In this document: positions 1 to 45,517 of the stretch, in pieces | How positions within the stretch are numbered: position 1 is the first letter of the stretch | Layout of the letters: each line of letters starts with the position of its first letter | Virus record (IMG/VR): IMGVR_UViG_3300045240_000141 | Span: 1 to 45,517 of that record | Direction: 5' to 3' (one strand) | Length of the DNA stretch: 45,517 nt | Source: a virus | Translations under genes and position numbers: made by a program | The notes under the pieces: model-generated | Database searches by the model: none | Told to the model about the DNA's origin: nothing | What the model saw: only the letters and a program-made list of their open reading frames with translations

Positions 1-185
1 GCAGTTTTTCAAAATTCCATCCCTTTCCTCACTGCTCCGTTAGGAGTCAAGACAATTCGCGGCAGTTCGCCCTTCCTCTTTTTATTTTTTTTTTCAGCGC
101 CGCAATTTCATTATTGCCTCACATTACGCCGGAGTAATGTGCGGGATTAATCCCCTCTTATACTGTATACTGTACTAACATTTGT
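1..185. repeat. left direct terminal repeat (185 bp)
   Basis: Bases 1-185 recur at 45333-45517 in the same orientation, with only two differences (positions 128 and 133). The repeat holds a T-rich tract near 79-94, a copy of the dispersed palindrome (121-140) and tandem TATACTG units near 159-172. A repeat of this size at both ends fits T7-like direct terminal repeats. It could instead be a circular-map overlap produced by assembly, but an assembler overlap should be identical, and here the two changed bases amount to an inverted palindrome loop. Confidence 0.85.
110..151. repeat. dispersed palindrome copy 1 (in left terminal repeat)
   Basis: Core ACATTAC at 121-127, loop GCCGGA, GTAATGT at 134-140. 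Inner arms are CCTCAC on the left and GTGCGG on the right (orientation A); outer flanks are TTATTG and GATTAAT. The loop is the reverse complement of the loop in the right-end copy. Confidence 0.9.
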
Positions 186-2874: not shown

Positions 2875-5202
2875 ATGCCTGCAGCTACTGTTGCTTCTCT
2901 GCCGAAGGGTGAAAAGGCTCTGCCCAAACGCACCAATGTTGGTGTGAGCAGCACCATCAACCACGTGACCGCGAAGATTCCACTGAAGGAACTCGTGGTC
3001 ATGCCCAATATTTGCGAGAAGCTGACGAAACAGCAGATCGATGATATTGGGAGTGCCGCTGTTGAAGGGTATCGGAAGGATCGGAGCAGCCGCGTCGAGT
3101 GGGAACAGCGGAACGCGGATGCGCTGAAGCTGGCCCTTCAAGTTGTGGAGGCGAAGAGCTTCCCCTGGGAGAATTGCTCCAACGTGAAGTTTCCGTTGAT
3201 CACCATCGCGGCACTGCAGTTTCTGGCCCGAATCAGCGTCCTTACCAAGGGCAAATACCCTGTGAAGGTGGAGAACTTCGGCGTGGACCCCGATGGCAAA
3301 GCCAATGAGCAGGCGCAGCGACTGTCCAAGCACCTCTCCTATCAGATCACGGAAGAGGATCTCAACTGGTTGGACGATGACGAGAAGACGAAGCTGTCAG
3401 CCTGCATCTTGGGCTGCGCCTTCAAGAAGACCTACTTCGACCCCATTACACAGATGGTTGTGTCGAAGTTCGTTCCCGCTTCCAACTTCGTCGTGGATTA
3501 CCATACGAAGAACTTGGACAGTTGCAACCGGGCGTCGGAGCTGATTCCCTGGACCAAGAACGATGTGGTAGAACGGGAGAGGGCCGGCGTCTTCCTCCCG
3601 ATGTCGGACACACCGCCTTCGCCCGAGATCGAAGTGAATCTGTTGAAGGAAGCCCGCGACGAAGCGACCGGCGTGCGGGACAATGAAGGCGGTGCCGACG
3701 ATGTGATGCACCTGACTCTTCCTTACTTGTTCATCGAACAGCATCTGTGGCTTGACCTTGACGGAGACGGCTATGCGGAACCTTACGTCGCCACAGTCCG
3801 GCTCGACACCAAAGAGTGTCTGCGAGTCGTGGCTCGATTCTTCGATGAAGGAGACGTCATTCGGAAGAACGATTCAGTGGTCCGAAAGCTGGAAGAGTCT
3901 GCGGAGAAGGCAGAGACCAGAGAAGAAAAGCAGAAGATCGATCGTCGAATCGCGGAGCTGAAGCAGGCGAAGGACAATTACATCCTGCGGATCGTGCCGG
4001 AGAAGTTCTACACCAAGTACACCTTCATCCCGTCGCCGGATGGCAGCTTCTACGACTTGGGGTTTGGTAGCTTGCTGGGGCCGCTGAATGCCAGTGTGGA
4101 CACGGTGATCAATCAGCTGATTGACAGCGGCACGATGAACACCACTGCGGGTGGTTTCTTGGGCCGTGGTGTGAAGCTAAAGGGCGGGAAGACGAGCTTC
4201 GACCCCTTCGAGTGGAAGCCCGTTGATAGCAGTGGCGATGATCTGCGGAAAAACATCTTCCCGCTGCCTGTCCGTGAGCCCTCTCAAGTGCTCTTTTCCT
4301 TGCTGCAACTCCTCATAACGTATGGGGAGAAGGTCAGCGGAGCCACCGACATCATGACGGGAATCAGCCCTGGCCAAAACACTCCTGCGGAGACCTCGCG
4401 CAACACCCTGGAACAGGGGATGAAGGTCTTCAGCGGGATCTTCGCCCGGATGCATCGCGGGTTTACCAACGAACTTCGCAAGTTCTACTCCCTCAACCGG
4501 CTGTACTTGCGGAGCACACCGCAGTGGGATCGGCTGACGAGCGGCCCTGCCGCCCTCATCATGCCCAGCGACTATCAGCCGGACACCTATCGGGTGAGGC
4601 CTGCCGTGGATGCAACGATGGTGAGTGAATCGCAGCGTCAACAAACGGCAGGCATGGTTCTGCAGGCAGCACAATCCAATCCTGGCTACAATGTGTACTT
4701 GGCGAACAAGGAATTCCTCGAATCCTACGGTGTGGGCAACATCGAACTTCTGCTCCCCGACCCGAAGGGACCGAATGCGATTCCGCCTGCCCCCAACCCG
4801 AAGCTGGAACTCGAAAAGCAGAAGCTGCAATTGGAAATGCAGCAAATGCAAATCGACCAGCAAACCACGATGATGGAATTGCAGCAAGACGCCATGGTCA
4901 ATCAGGCGAAAATCCTCAAGCTGCAAGCGGAAGCAACAAAACTCTTGGCAGATGCCGAGGGTATCGATACGGGGCACCAAATTGCCCTGTTAAATGCTCA
5001 AATCGGTGCAGCCAAGTCGCACGAAGAGAGCCTTTTCAAAGCGCTGCAACTCATGCAGAAATCAATAGACCAACGGCAGAAAGCCGCGAAAGAAGGAGTG
5101 CCAGGTGGACCAGCAAAAACAGCAGAAGCAGCTGCGGGAAGAGTCGCGGGAATGGTTAGCCCACCCGGTGACCAAGCGGCTCTTGGACAGCCTGCGGGCT
5201 AG
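2875..5202 (+). CDS. portal protein
   Basis: A 775-residue portal that forms the dodecameric DNA gate at one capsid vertex. The segment FPWENCSNVKFPLITIAALQ near residues 96-115 is characteristic of large podovirus/siphovirus portals, followed by a long alpha/beta body. Residues about 630-710 form a Q/K/L-rich coiled coil, expected for the barrel or tail part of the portal. Start ATG at 2875 has AAGGAAA just upstream. The last 98 bases overlap the next gene in another frame. Its position immediately after terL supports the call. It is longer than minimal portals (about 500 residues), in line with P22-like long portals. Confidence 0.9.
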   Translation: MPAATVASLPKGEKALPKRTNVGVSSTINHVTAKIPLKELVVMPNICEKLTKQQIDDIGSAAVEGYRKDRSSRVEWEQRNADALKLALQVVEAKSFPWENCSNVKFPLITIAALQFLARISVLTKGKYPVKVENFGVDPDGKANEQAQRLSKHLSYQITEEDLNWLDDDEKTKLSACILGCAFKKTYFDPITQMVVSKFVPASNFVVDYHTKNLDSCNRASELIPWTKNDVVERERAGVFLPMSDTPPSPEIEVNLLKEARDEATGVRDNEGGADDVMHLTLPYLFIEQHLWLDLDGDGYAEPYVATVRLDTKECLRVVARFFDEGDVIRKNDSVVRKLEESAEKAETREEKQKIDRRIAELKQAKDNYILRIVPEKFYTKYTFIPSPDGSFYDLGFGSLLGPLNASVDTVINQLIDSGTMNTTAGGFLGRGVKLKGGKTSFDPFEWKPVDSSGDDLRKNIFPLPVREPSQVLFSLLQLLITYGEKVSGATDIMTGISPGQNTPAETSRNTLEQGMKVFSGIFARMHRGFTNELRKFYSLNRLYLRSTPQWDRLTSGPAALIMPSDYQPDTYRVRPAVDATMVSESQRQQTAGMVLQAAQSNPGYNVYLANKEFLESYGVGNIELLLPDPKGPNAIPPAPNPKLELEKQKLQLEMQQMQIDQQTTMMELQQDAMVNQAKILKLQAEATKLLADAEGIDTGHQIALLNAQIGAAKSHEESLFKALQLMQKSIDQRQKAAKEGVPGGPAKTAEAAAGRVAGMVSPPGDQAALGQPAG

Positions 5203-29070: not shown

Positions 29071-29517
29071 TTACAGCGGTGCGACCTTCTTGATTTCGGC
29101 GTAGGTGTCTTCGCCGTCGACGCGGTGGCTCACCGTCACCTTGCCGGCTTGCCCCGGCAGCATCGAGAAGGAGAAGGGCTGGCCCGGCTTGTTCAGGTTG
29201 AGGGCTTCACGCAGACGGCCCAGACCGACGTTCTTGCCCTTGCCCATGTCCAAGCCACCGCCCGGGGTCATGTCGAGCATGATGCCTTGGCGGCAGGTGA
29301 CCGTCGGACGGCCCAGCTCTTGCTTGACGGCTTCGTCGTCGATGAGCCAGGTGACGTCAAGGGTAACCCCGGACATCGTGCCGTCTTTGGAGGTCCACTG
29401 GCGGGCAGCGACCTTGTCGACGATGCCGGTGAATTCGCCAGCCGGTACGGGGATGACCTTGGTGTCGTTGGCGCTGTTGATGGAAGAGTCGAGGAAGCTT
29501 TGTGGGTCGAAGGACAT
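29071..29517 (-). CDS. putative single-stranded DNA-binding protein
   Basis: A 148-residue protein. It has a beta-rich body (GEFTGIVDKVAARQW, SGVTLDVTWLID, PFSFSMLPGQAGKVTVSHR) and a helical motif GGLDMGKGKNVGLGRLREAL (about 94-113). Proteins of this type sit with phage replication and Sak4 genes and are often OB-fold-like. Sak4 annealases work with a cognate SSB, and a Sak4-type gene lies 1.4 kb upstream, so an SSB role is inferred. ATG 29517 is chosen over 29580 because it begins the conserved SFDPQSFL and has GGAAAAA upstream. A long leader with structured elements and a near-consensus promoter lies upstream. Confidence 0.5.
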   Translation of the reverse strand: MSFDPQSFLDSSINSANDTKVIPVPAGEFTGIVDKVAARQWTSKDGTMSGVTLDVTWLIDDEAVKQELGRPTVTCRQGIMLDMTPGGGLDMGKGKNVGLGRLREALNLNKPGQPFSFSMLPGQAGKVTVSHRVDGEDTYAEIKKVAPL

Positions 29518-29621
29518 GGTTTTTCCAATACGAAAAGGTTGAAAGTCAAAGGTCAAATGGCAAAGGTAGAAGGGGTGCACCAGGATTCCCGGTGCGTTCT
29601 ATCTCTGGGAGGGGGCTCCGT

Positions 29622-29665
29622 CAATTAATACCTCACATTACTGGCTAGTAATATGCGGCAATAAC
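29622..29665. repeat. dispersed palindrome copy 7
   Basis: Core ACATTAC 29635-29641, loop TGGCTA, GTAATAT 29648-29654. Arms CCTCAC/ATGCGG (orientation A); flanks TTAATA and CAATAAC. It lies in the leader of the SSB-like gene. Confidence 0.9.
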
Positions 29666-29680
29666 TACCGGGGAACACTC

Positions 29681-29714
29681 CGCACTGCTTTCTAGAGATT
29701 AGAGAAACAGTGCG
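29681..29714 (-). ncRNA. hairpin in SSB-like leader
   Basis: CGCACTG (29681-29687) pairs with CAGTGCG (29708-29714). Inside, TTTCT pairs with AGAAA after a one-base bulge, giving about 12 base pairs. It lies between the three-way junction candidate and palindrome copy 7 on the leftward transcript. Confidence 0.45.
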
Positions 29715-29745
29715 CAGGGCTCGGAAGAACAGAAGAGCAGTGGTG

Positions 29746-29813
29746 GATGTCCGGGGGGGTTGCTTTGACGCCTCTCGGCGTACCCGTTTTTTGGGCAGCT
29801 GACCCCGGACATC
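29746..29813 (-). ncRNA. three-way-junction structured RNA candidate
   Basis: On the minus strand, an 11-bp closing stem pairs GATGTCCGGGG (29813-29803) with CCCCGGACATC (29756-29746). Inside it, GCCC/GGGT (29796-29793 with 29785-29782) forms a small A-rich-loop hairpin. Directly abutting it, ACGCC-GAGA-GGCGT (29781-29768) is a 5-bp stem capped by a GNRA-type tetraloop. It starts about 35 bases after the predicted transcription start. Alternatively, the plus strand gives a weak rightward terminator (ACGCC-TCTC-GGCGT followed by six T). A regulatory leader or small RNA is inferred. Confidence 0.45.
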
Positions 29814-29855
29814 GTCTGGGCATACTCGGTGATACCGGAAATCCCAATACAGGGA

Positions 29856-29883
29856 ATTATATGTGTGTGTCGCTAGCGGTCAA
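29856..29883 (-). promoter_or_regulatory. sigma70-type promoter, leftward
   Basis: TTGACC (-35, 29883-29878) and TATAAT (-10, 29861-29856) are separated by 16 bases on the minus strand, an 11/12 match to the bacterial consensus. TCCC follows the -10. It would drive the structured leader and the SSB-like, membrane-protein, methyltransferase and polymerase genes. Confidence 0.6.
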
Positions 29884-30471: not shown

Positions 30472-30933
30472 CTAATAATAGTTACTGTCCCTCCCCTTCC
30501 TTGCTGCTTGGCAGCCGGCGCAGCTGCACCCATGATCAGTATAGGTGGGATTGGGCGCCATGGGCTTCGGCTGCGCTGTCCACCCCTTCTGTGCCTGCGC
30601 CTGTGTGTGCTTCAGCCGCAGCGCTTGGCGGTCCTTTTCCAACTGCTTCAGCAGCTTCACCGTGTCTTCCCAGCGAACTTCCAGGCTGGCCTGCTCCCTC
30701 AGCGCTTCTGGGTTGAACAGGACCTCTCCGGGGCGGCTGGTGAAGTCGAAACCCTGCAATTGCAGCTTCTCCACTATTCCTTCCATGAGAAAGCGGAGGC
30801 TCCGGTTGGCATCTTCCCCCATCCGGTGATCCTGAATGTCCACCCCCCGTCCAGGCTTCCGTGCGGCCGACCCCAGAAGGAACAGTGCGATGCCTGTGGA
30901 CCGGCCAGTCCGTCGATTCAGATCTTCGCTCAT
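30472..30933 (-). CDS. hypothetical protein with C-terminal cysteine cluster
   Basis: A 153-residue protein. The first part has a beta/helix mix (RSTGIALFLLGSAARKPGRG), the middle is a helical segment (WEDTVKLLKQLEKDRQALRLKH), and the end has HGCSCAGC near 138-145, a possible metal site. ATG 30933 overlaps the Sak4 stop as ATGA, so it is translated together with the ATPase and may be its partner in recombination. An in-frame extension to 31077 runs inside the Sak4 gene and was not used. Confidence 0.6.
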   Translation of the reverse strand: MSEDLNRRTGRSTGIALFLLGSAARKPGRGVDIQDHRMGEDANRSLRFLMEGIVEKLQLQGFDFTSRPGEVLFNPEALREQASLEVRWEDTVKLLKQLEKDRQALRLKHTQAQAQKGWTAQPKPMAPNPTYTDHGCSCAGCQAARKGRDSNYY

Positions 30934-31817
30934 GCCGCAGCTCCTTGTACTTCCACTTCCAGTACTCCTCCGCGGCTCAGCCACTTGTCCACAATGGGCT
31001 TGAAGCTCGGGGGCATGCCACTTCTGATGGGCAGATTCCGCGTCTTCACATCCGCAAGCGCGCTGCCTGTGTCCCAATAGAACTTATCCCCTTCGCGGAC
31101 GCTCAGAATGACGTCGCTGAACATCGGCACAACTTCCGGACCGAGGGCTTTGCCCAGACTTTTGAGGGTGATCTTCACACCTCCGAGCACCTGATCGGTC
31201 TCCCTGTCCACATGAGCCAGCATCACGAAGTGACACTTCAGCTGATTGGTGATCATGTGGAGGAGGGTCGAGACCTGCCGCTGCGCAATGCCCCAGTCGG
31301 ACTGGTTTTGAACGGGTTTCCCACCAACGACAAGGCCCATCGCTGCTCTTGCAAGACCTGCCATTCCGTCAATGGCAAGGCATCTGCCGGGCCCCCACTC
31401 GTCGGTGGCGCCGAAGGTTTTACCGGTTCTGTCACATTTGAAGTCATTGAGACTCTCCAGAATGAGTTCGAAAGTGTTGTGCTTCCTGCGATCGGGGTCG
31501 GCCATCTTCGCAAGAGCATCCAAGCTCATGGTATTGACCTTTTTTGCTTGTGCGAGTAGATCTGTGAATTTGGCCTTCGGCGCTTCGATAATGTGCCAGT
31601 GGACGCCTTCCGGTACGGGCAGTCCCCGGTCGGTCCAGTAGCCAAGGAGGGATTCCAACCCTGGCTCCAACCCCATGTAGAACAGCTCCACGCCAGCATC
31701 CACCAGTGTGCCCAAGGCGAAGGTTTTGCCAGTGCCTGGAGGCCCCATCAGGAGGACGTTGACGCCAGGAAGGAGGCTTTCGCCTGAGGCGATGGGGGTT
31801 GCGACTTCGATTGTCAT
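30930..31817 (-). CDS. Sak4-like RecA-fold ATPase
   Basis: A 295-residue RecA-core ATPase. Walker A GPPGTGKT is at residues 25-32, a Walker B-like RCLAIDGMAGLA is near 145-156, and HFVMLAHVDRET (about 196-207) is a conserved late strand of this group. Size and compact core match the Sak4-type annealing ATPases of phages rather than full RecA. Sak4 proteins promote single-strand annealing and recombination, usually with a phage SSB. Nearby SSB-like (29071) and Cas4/RecB-like (32394) genes complete a recombination set. This activity is a candidate source of the inverted palindromes. AAAGGAAAA precedes ATG 31817. Confidence 0.7.
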   Translation of the reverse strand: MTIEVATPIASGESLLPGVNVLLMGPPGTGKTFALGTLVDAGVELFYMGLEPGLESLLGYWTDRGLPVPEGVHWHIIEAPKAKFTDLLAQAKKVNTMSLDALAKMADPDRRKHNTFELILESLNDFKCDRTGKTFGATDEWGPGRCLAIDGMAGLARAAMGLVVGGKPVQNQSDWGIAQRQVSTLLHMITNQLKCHFVMLAHVDRETDQVLGGVKITLKSLGKALGPEVVPMFSDVILSVREGDKFYWDTGSALADVKTRNLPIRSGMPPSFKPIVDKWLSRGGVLEVEVQGAAA

Positions 31818-45332: not shown

Positions 45333-45517
45333 GCAGTTTTTCAAAATTCCATCCCTTTCCTCACTGCTCCGTTAGGAGTCAAGACAATTCGCGGCAGTTC
45401 GCCCTTCCTCTTTTTATTTTTTTTTTCAGCGCCGCAATTTCATTATTGCCTCACATTACTCCGGCGTAATGTGCGGGATTAATCCCCTCTTATACTGTAT
45501 ACTGTACTAACATTTGT
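45333..45517. repeat. right direct terminal repeat (185 bp)
   Basis: Matches 1-185 except at two bases inside the palindrome loop (45460 and 45465 correspond to 128 and 133). The differences turn GCCGGA into TCCGGC, its reverse complement. It carries palindrome copy 13. Confidence 0.85.
45442..45483. repeat. dispersed palindrome copy 13 (in right terminal repeat)
   Basis: Core ACATTAC 45453-45459, loop TCCGGC, GTAATGT 45466-45472; arms CCTCAC/GTGCGG as in copy 1. Only the loop is inverted relative to copy 1. Confidence 0.9.

What the first reader, a model, noticed from the sequence alone, without database searches (positions are those of the whole stretch)
29746..29883. Near-consensus promoter followed by a three-way-junction RNA with a GNRA loop
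TTGACC-16-TATAAT is followed about 35 bases later by an 11-bp closing stem, two inner hairpins that abut (one with GAGA tetraloop), a further 12-bp hairpin and then palindrome copy 7, all before the SSB-like start. So much ordered structure in a 330-base leader suggests a regulatory RNA or a stable small RNA.
Basis: partly seen in the sequence, partly recalled or inferred. Interest (0 to 1): 0.6.

Follow-up and report, generated by a model that had tools for sequence, protein, structure and literature searches.

The report
Structured leader of a phage SSB mRNA
The folded stretch is the control region (mRNA leader) in front of a phage single-stranded-DNA-binding protein gene; this phage's own fold is not shared by its relatives, but many relatives carry an undescribed, strongly covarying RNA pseudoknot in the same place, which suggests that the protein shuts off its own translation as phage T4's does.

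Summary
On the minus strand, TTGACC-16-TATAAT (29883-29856) is the only such site in the window (0.02 expected). It precedes a predicted three-way junction (29813-29746, z -5.0), a long hairpin, a palindrome hairpin and a short hairpin, then a 59-nt G-poor unstructured tract and the start of a gene at 29517. That gene encodes an OB-fold SSB, supported by an AlphaFold2 model, Foldseek and its place near a Sak4-like gene.

The three-way junction itself is not conserved. L002, the only relative sharing part of the leader, keeps the promoter position, the GNRA hairpin, the palindrome and the tract, but not the 11-bp stem. L082 has none of the junction's sequence.

The same leader in more distant relatives gives the real result. 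Many carry a three-helix pseudoknot just after the promoter. It covaries strongly (15 of 17 pairs with two-sided changes on a blind alignment; 6 further loci confirm it), was found only before this SSB gene, and matches no Rfam family. SSB leaders in general are rich in pseudoknots (36% against 5% of control leaders) and carry an unusually G-poor, unpaired tract.

Best reading: a translational operator working like T4 gene 32's, with the pseudoknot replaced in this phage by other folds. No autoregulation has been measured.

The parts
29856..29883 (-). Promoter TTGACC-16-TATAAT (11 of 12 consensus)
   Evidence: only such site in the window, 0.02 expected; L002 has TTGACA-17-TATAAT at the matching place
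29817..29846 (-). First leader hairpin, between promoter and junction
   Evidence: Fold
29746..29813 (-). Three-way-junction fold: 11-bp P1, P2 (GCCC/GGGU), P3 with GAGA GNRA loop
   Evidence: -35.8 kcal/mol, z -5.0; stem P1 not found in any relative
29673..29722 (-). Long hairpin (CUGCGCACUGUUUC...GAAAGCAGUGCGGAG)
   Evidence: z -6.6
29622..29665 (-). Dyad repeat, one of 13 copies in the window; hairpin if transcribed
29596..29624 (-). Weak promoter-like TTGACG-17-TAGAAC at the position where relatives have their promoter; function doubtful, because a start from it would cut into the next hairpin
   Evidence: Sequence reading; relatives
29577..29595 (-). Short hairpin GCACCGGGAAUCCUGGUGC
   Evidence: z -3.1
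29518..29576 (-). G-poor, unstructured pyrimidine-rich tract with UUUGACC repeats, running into the ribosome-binding site (GGA 29526-29524); presumed SSB landing strip
   Evidence: -2.6 kcal/mol, z +0.2; TTTGACC element kept in L002 and L082; family-wide G depletion
29071..29517 (-). Gene for a 148-aa OB-fold single-stranded-DNA-binding protein
30930..31817 (-). Nearby Sak4-like recombinase gene (context)

Best explanation
The region is the 5' leader (about 330 nt) of an early phage mRNA that starts at the minus-strand promoter and encodes an OB-fold SSB. The leader most likely works as a translational operator for that SSB, in the way known for phage T4 gene 32. Folded RNA at the 5' side marks the message, and once viral single-stranded DNA is saturated, surplus SSB binds the message, spreads along the unstructured G-poor tract and covers the ribosome-binding site. 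In many related phages the folded part is a compact three-helix pseudoknot or another pseudoknot; in this phage it has been replaced by a three-way junction and hairpins. Supported by sequence and prediction: promoter sequence, folds, unstructured tract, SSB fold, covarying pseudoknot in relatives. Inferred: that SSB binds its own leader, that binding represses translation, and that the three-way junction has any part in it.
For: Gene identity: AlphaFold2 model with pLDDT 88; nearest solved folds are the ssDNA-binding PrgE (E 3e-5) and weaker RPA OB domains; viral models include DUF669 proteins and an annotated SSB; two family members match PHROG 378, SSB; a Sak4-like gene lies nearby, the arrangement in which a DUF669 protein was shown biochemically to be an SSB (PMC5928155). 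Leader structure. Relatives: on a blind 25-sequence alignment the structure P1+P2+P3 pairs in 87.7% of cells against 34-47% when slid, and 15 of 17 pairs have two-sided changes. Six loci not used to build the model give E about 1e-10 or better; counting in P3, which the model does not pair, 93.1% of cells pair against 30-41% slid. The model's strong hits are only leaders of this SSB gene among 81 sources searched. Pseudoknot potential beats 99% of shuffles in 30 of 83 SSB leaders against 16 of 350 other leaders, Fisher p 2e-13. The -52 to -14 tract has 12.7% G against 23.7% in other leaders (p 8e-24) and is less paired (0.59 unpaired against 0.46, p 1e-15). The T4 operator has the same two parts, a 5' pseudoknot and an unstructured repeat tract over the ribosome-binding site (PMC535899, PMC3014915), and T4-like phage RB49 is reported to lack a recognisable pseudoknot while keeping the repeats, as this window does.
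Against: The window itself has no pseudoknot above chance, and its three-way junction is not conserved. Some relatives (for example L031-L042, L082) have neither an adjacent promoter nor a pseudoknot. No binding or expression data exist. The family profile shows no sequence match to T4 gp32 or any other solved chain. The UUAAA repeats of T4 are absent from this tract.
Confidence: 0.45

Rival explanations
1. The folded leader only stabilises or insulates the mRNA: 5' hairpins protect it from RNase attack and keep the ribosome-binding site free. Any stable fold will do, which is why folds differ between phages.
For: Folds differ widely between relatives, from simple 5' hairpins (L112, L128) to pseudoknots; in this window five folds sit in series.
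Against: A stabiliser does not need a pseudoknot with conserved joining residues (AUR and AAA), nor a G-poor unpaired tract specific to the SSB gene.
Confidence: 0.27
2. The three-way junction is incidental: GC-rich non-coding spacer left by turnover of phage sequence, with no selected function, downstream of a real promoter.
For: No conservation of stem P1; 1.5% of the genome's windows fold as well; L002's leader folds no better than shuffles.
Against: z -5.0 for the 74-nt element, the genome's strongest minus-strand z in the same leader, and a GNRA hairpin kept in L002 with a loop change that keeps the GNRA type (GAGA to GTGA).
Confidence: 0.18
3. A discrete stable small RNA is made from this promoter, separate from the SSB mRNA.
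For: Strong promoter sequence and a compact fold; no coding sequence assigned in between.
Against: No intrinsic terminator on this strand before the gene; no Rfam match; no sequence conservation of the element.
Confidence: 0.06
4. The leaders of this gene family are ligand-sensing riboswitches rather than protein operators.
For: In relatives the joining residues between P1 and P2 are conserved (AUR on one side, AAA on the other), as in ligand pockets.
Against: The gene is an SSB, for which a small-molecule input is not obvious; architectures differ between relatives; no Rfam riboswitch match.
Confidence: 0.04

Closest known systems
Phage T4 / RB69 gene 32 translational operator (PMC535899, PMC3014915)
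   Same: Folded RNA (a pseudoknot in T4 and in the relatives here) at the 5' side of an SSB message, followed by an unstructured repeat tract of 40 nt or more covering the ribosome-binding site; operator sequence diverges between related phages, and RB49 is reported to keep the repeats without a recognisable pseudoknot
   Different: The SSB shows no detectable sequence relation to gp32; in relatives the pseudoknot has an inner helix P2 and conserved joining residues; repeats are UUUGACC or AACCUU types, not UUAAA; the window has a three-way junction instead of a pseudoknot; repression not measured
STAXI motif (PMC2864571)
   Same: Pseudoknots near genes for single-stranded-DNA-binding proteins
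   Different: STAXI is two or three tandem pseudoknots; here there is one per leader, directly behind the promoter; no Rfam family matched the window or the relatives
DUF669 SSB of phage HK620 next to sak4 (PMC5928155)
   Same: Phage SSB of the OB/DUF669 kind encoded near a Sak4 recombinase gene
   Different: That work concerns the proteins; I took no leader RNA from it

Membership tests
[quoted passage not shown]
   OB-fold SSB by predicted structure; ssDNA binding itself not measured
T4 gene 32-type autogenous SSB operator | Pseudoknot at the 5' side as nucleation site | tested here: not met
   Window: best candidate no better than shuffles, model R1 best 4.5 bits. Met in many relatives
T4 gene 32-type autogenous SSB operator | Unstructured repeat tract covering the ribosome-binding site | tested here: met
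   z +0.2 for 29576-29518; TTTGACC element kept in relatives; family-wide
T4 gene 32-type autogenous SSB operator | UUAAA/UAAA repeats | tested here: not met
   Tract reads ACCUUUGCCAUUUGACCUUUGACUUUCAACC
T4 gene 32-type autogenous SSB operator | SSB binds the leader and represses its own translation | not testable with these tools
   Needs binding and reporter assays
STAXI motif | Matches the Rfam model; tandem pseudoknots | tested here: not met
   No match in the window or in the related loci searched; one pseudoknot per leader
Any described Rfam family | Match at or above the family's threshold | tested here: not met
   window; relatives; one sub-threshold hit elsewhere in L163
Pseudoknot leader of the relatives (model R1) | P1, P2 and P3 with conserved joining residues | tested here: not met
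   no match in the window leader with filters off
Stand-alone small RNA | Own 3' end or terminator before the next gene | tested here: not met
   none on the minus strand in the leader; processing by nucleases cannot be excluded

The most novel reading that the evidence does not exclude
A large, mostly uncultivated family of phages with Sak4-associated SSBs controls SSB synthesis through leader RNAs whose folded part is exchanged again and again (three-helix pseudoknot, other H-type pseudoknots, hairpins, here a three-way junction) while the SSB landing tract stays. That would be a second origin of the T4 gene 32 type of control, with many natural variants of the recognition element.
Probability: 0.35. 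Interest if true: 0.7.

Novelty: new variant of a known kind. Interest (0 to 1): 0.5.

Why it matters
How T4 gp32 tells its own message from bulk nucleic acid has long been unclear. A second, apparently unrelated SSB family with dozens of diverged leaders, many built around covarying pseudoknots and some without, would allow the question to be tested by comparison: what is constant (the unpaired G-poor tract) and what may vary (the folded nucleation site). The pseudoknot class found in the relatives is an undescribed structured RNA with strong covariation. The window's own three-way junction is the less important part.

Tried and rejected
Rfam search of the window and relatives: nothing above threshold. 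DNA similarity of the leader to phage records: none. A pattern for the shared CCGGGGTCAGC...GNRA hairpin in 2.9 million viral contigs found only the L002 contig again. The upstream 64-aa gene as bait found only that contig. A search for H-type pseudoknots in the window leader was no better than shuffles in four of five segments; the segment 29740-29640 reached 7 of 100 shuffles only by reusing the long hairpin. The relatives' covariance model finds nothing in the window. BLAST of the leader against all fetched loci gave only chance matches and palindrome copies. L082's block upstream of the palindrome folds only slightly better than shuffles (z -2.0), so it is not counted as a junction homologue. 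The second promoter-like site at 29624-29596 is weak and would start inside a hairpin. A sequence-profile search of solved structures found nothing.

Full report
What is there. The finding lies on the minus strand of a 45.5-kb virus record. The early genes run leftwards here: a helicase, an exonuclease, a Sak4-like ATPase, small proteins, then the leader, the SSB-like gene, a methyltransferase and a DNA polymerase. TTGACC-16-TATAAT at 29883-29856 is the only site of its kind in the window, with 0.02 expected. From a start near 29849, about 330 nt precede the ATG at 29517. A short hairpin (29595-29577, z -3.1) and then 59 nt with no structure (z +0.2) complete the leader. In a scan of both strands, 27 of 1818 windows have a z as low as the reported stretch, and the following part of the leader holds the best minus-strand value of the genome.

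The gene. Aligned with 35 relatives, the 148-aa protein gives a confident model (pLDDT 88) whose nearest solved relatives are the ssDNA-binding PrgE and, more weakly, RPA OB domains. Its nearest viral models include DUF669 proteins and an annotated SSB. Two members reach PHROG 378, single-strand DNA-binding protein. A DUF669 protein next to sak4 in phage HK620 has been shown to be an SSB (PMC5928155). The name SSB is therefore well supported, though ssDNA binding of this protein is not measured. A scan of about 85,000 bacterial and archaeal genomes found a single relative, on a 45-kb contig binned with a Saccharibacteria assembly, so these are probably lytic phages with unknown hosts.

Is the fold conserved? 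Only L002 shares part of the leader. It has the same small gene upstream, a perfect TTGACA-17-TATAAT, CCGGGGTCAGC, the hairpin GCGCC-GTGA-GGCGT where the window has ACGCC-GAGA-GGCGT, the palindrome and the TTTGACC tract. It has no 3' partner for the 11-bp stem, and its leader folds no better than shuffled sequence (z -0.15; z -1.7 for the first 191 nt). L082, the closest SSB of the second scan (74% identity), has a small reading frame where the window has the last part of its leader, and only the TTTGACC tract in common. Further searches found no other carrier. So the hairpin may be older than the junction, and the junction as a whole is particular to this phage as far as can be seen. Two sequences cannot give a covariation test.

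What relatives have at that place. Reading the leaders of more than 100 relatives showed that many have TTGACA-17-TATAAT about 110-140 nt before the ATG, followed at once by a compact element. Its helices are P1 (like CCCGC/GCGGG), a joint AUR, P2 (like ACGGU/ACUGU), a loop with P3 5' (like GGCGACUG), a joint AAA, and P3 3' (CAGUCGC) downstream of P1. P3 therefore pairs the hairpin loop with the sequence behind it, a pseudoknot. On a blind MAFFT alignment of 25 leaders, 87.7% of cells pair, against 34-47% when partners are slid by one to three columns; 15 of 17 pairs have changes on both sides, and the covariation score is 0.568 against 0.216 +/- 0.019 in shuffles. Relatedness of sequences inflates such shuffle tests, so the slid control and independent data matter more. 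A model with only P1 and P2 as pairs found six loci not used to build it at E about 1e-10 or better, including the GenBank phage MW202489. On these six, with P3 added, 93.1% of cells pair against 30-41% slid, and P3 alone pairs in 97.6% with two-sided changes at three pairs. All strong hits lie just before this SSB gene.

Beyond this class. Other leaders hold different pseudoknots, for example L099 (CCCGC-A-GCCGGGG-GCGGG...CCCCGGC) and L122. As a test without choosing leaders by eye, the best H-type pseudoknot energy in the 100 nt before the ribosome-binding site was matched by at most 1 of 100 dinucleotide shuffles in 30 of 83 SSB leaders, against 16 of 350 leaders of other genes in the same phages (Fisher p 2e-13). 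The tract at -52 to -14 is strongly depleted of G (12.7% against 23.7%) and less paired. In many phages it is made of short repeats: AACCUU, UUUGACC, and in L166 a run of AACACUU. The control set comes from a crude ORF caller, so its exact numbers should be taken with care, but the differences are large.

Mechanism. T4 gene 32 is controlled by its product: gp32 nucleates on a 5' pseudoknot and spreads over an unstructured tract of UUAAA repeats that includes the ribosome-binding site; RB69 has a diverged version, and RB49 is reported to lack a recognisable pseudoknot but keep the repeats (PMC535899, PMC3014915). The leaders described here have the same two-part design before an SSB gene with no detectable sequence relation to gp32. 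The likeliest working model is therefore autogenous translational repression. For the window, the unstructured tract is present and the pseudoknot is not. Whether the three-way junction serves as a nucleation site, a barrier that confines SSB to the tract, or a 5' stabiliser is open. The main rival is a passive mRNA-stabilising leader.

Limits. No transcript, binding or repression data exist. Structures are predictions. The window's own fold could be tested for conservation in one partial relative only. The T4 resemblance is one of design, not of descent; one defining feature, the pseudoknot, was tested and not met in the window, so the window is not filed as a member of the T4 type but as something that may work like it.

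Noticed in passing
window 122, 5752, 8901, 12950, 18292, 23276, 29636, 30440, 34575, 37656, 42871, 43440, 45454: Thirteen copies of a dyad repeat of about 44 bp (ATTAATACCKCACATTACT-N3-5-AGTAATRTGMGGCAATAAC; one-mismatch core gives 24 matches on both strands, 0.01 expected). In related phages the core ATTAC...GTAAT stays while the outer arms change but keep pairing (L084, L109, L129), so both the core sequence and the dyad seem to matter; possibly a genome-wide operator or cruciform site.
   Followed up: partly
window 1-185 and 45333-45517: The two ends of the record are a direct repeat of 185 bp (183 identical), so the genome is probably complete. The only differences are in the palindrome centre, which reads GCCGGAG at one end and CTCCGGC, its reverse complement, at the other: an inverted hairpin loop, by recombination or by assembly.
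   Followed up: partly
L001, L003, L151, L153, L163 and others, within about 110 nt before the SSB start: Undescribed three-helix pseudoknot RNA class with strong covariation and conserved joining residues AUR/AAA, no Rfam match.
   Followed up: yes
L155, L223, L228, L244 before the SSB start: Apparently another pseudoknot type (GCCCGC...GCUGGGC with GCCGGU/ACCGGC; L223 has GACGGU/ACCGUC, a two-sided change), seen by eye without a formal test.
   Followed up: no
L166 about 1600-1740: A run of tandem AACACTT copies directly before the ribosome-binding site of the SSB gene, an extreme form of the unstructured tract.
   Followed up: no
window 2951-3059, + strand: Strongest fold z-score of the whole scan (-7.9), inside a late-gene reading frame.
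   Followed up: no
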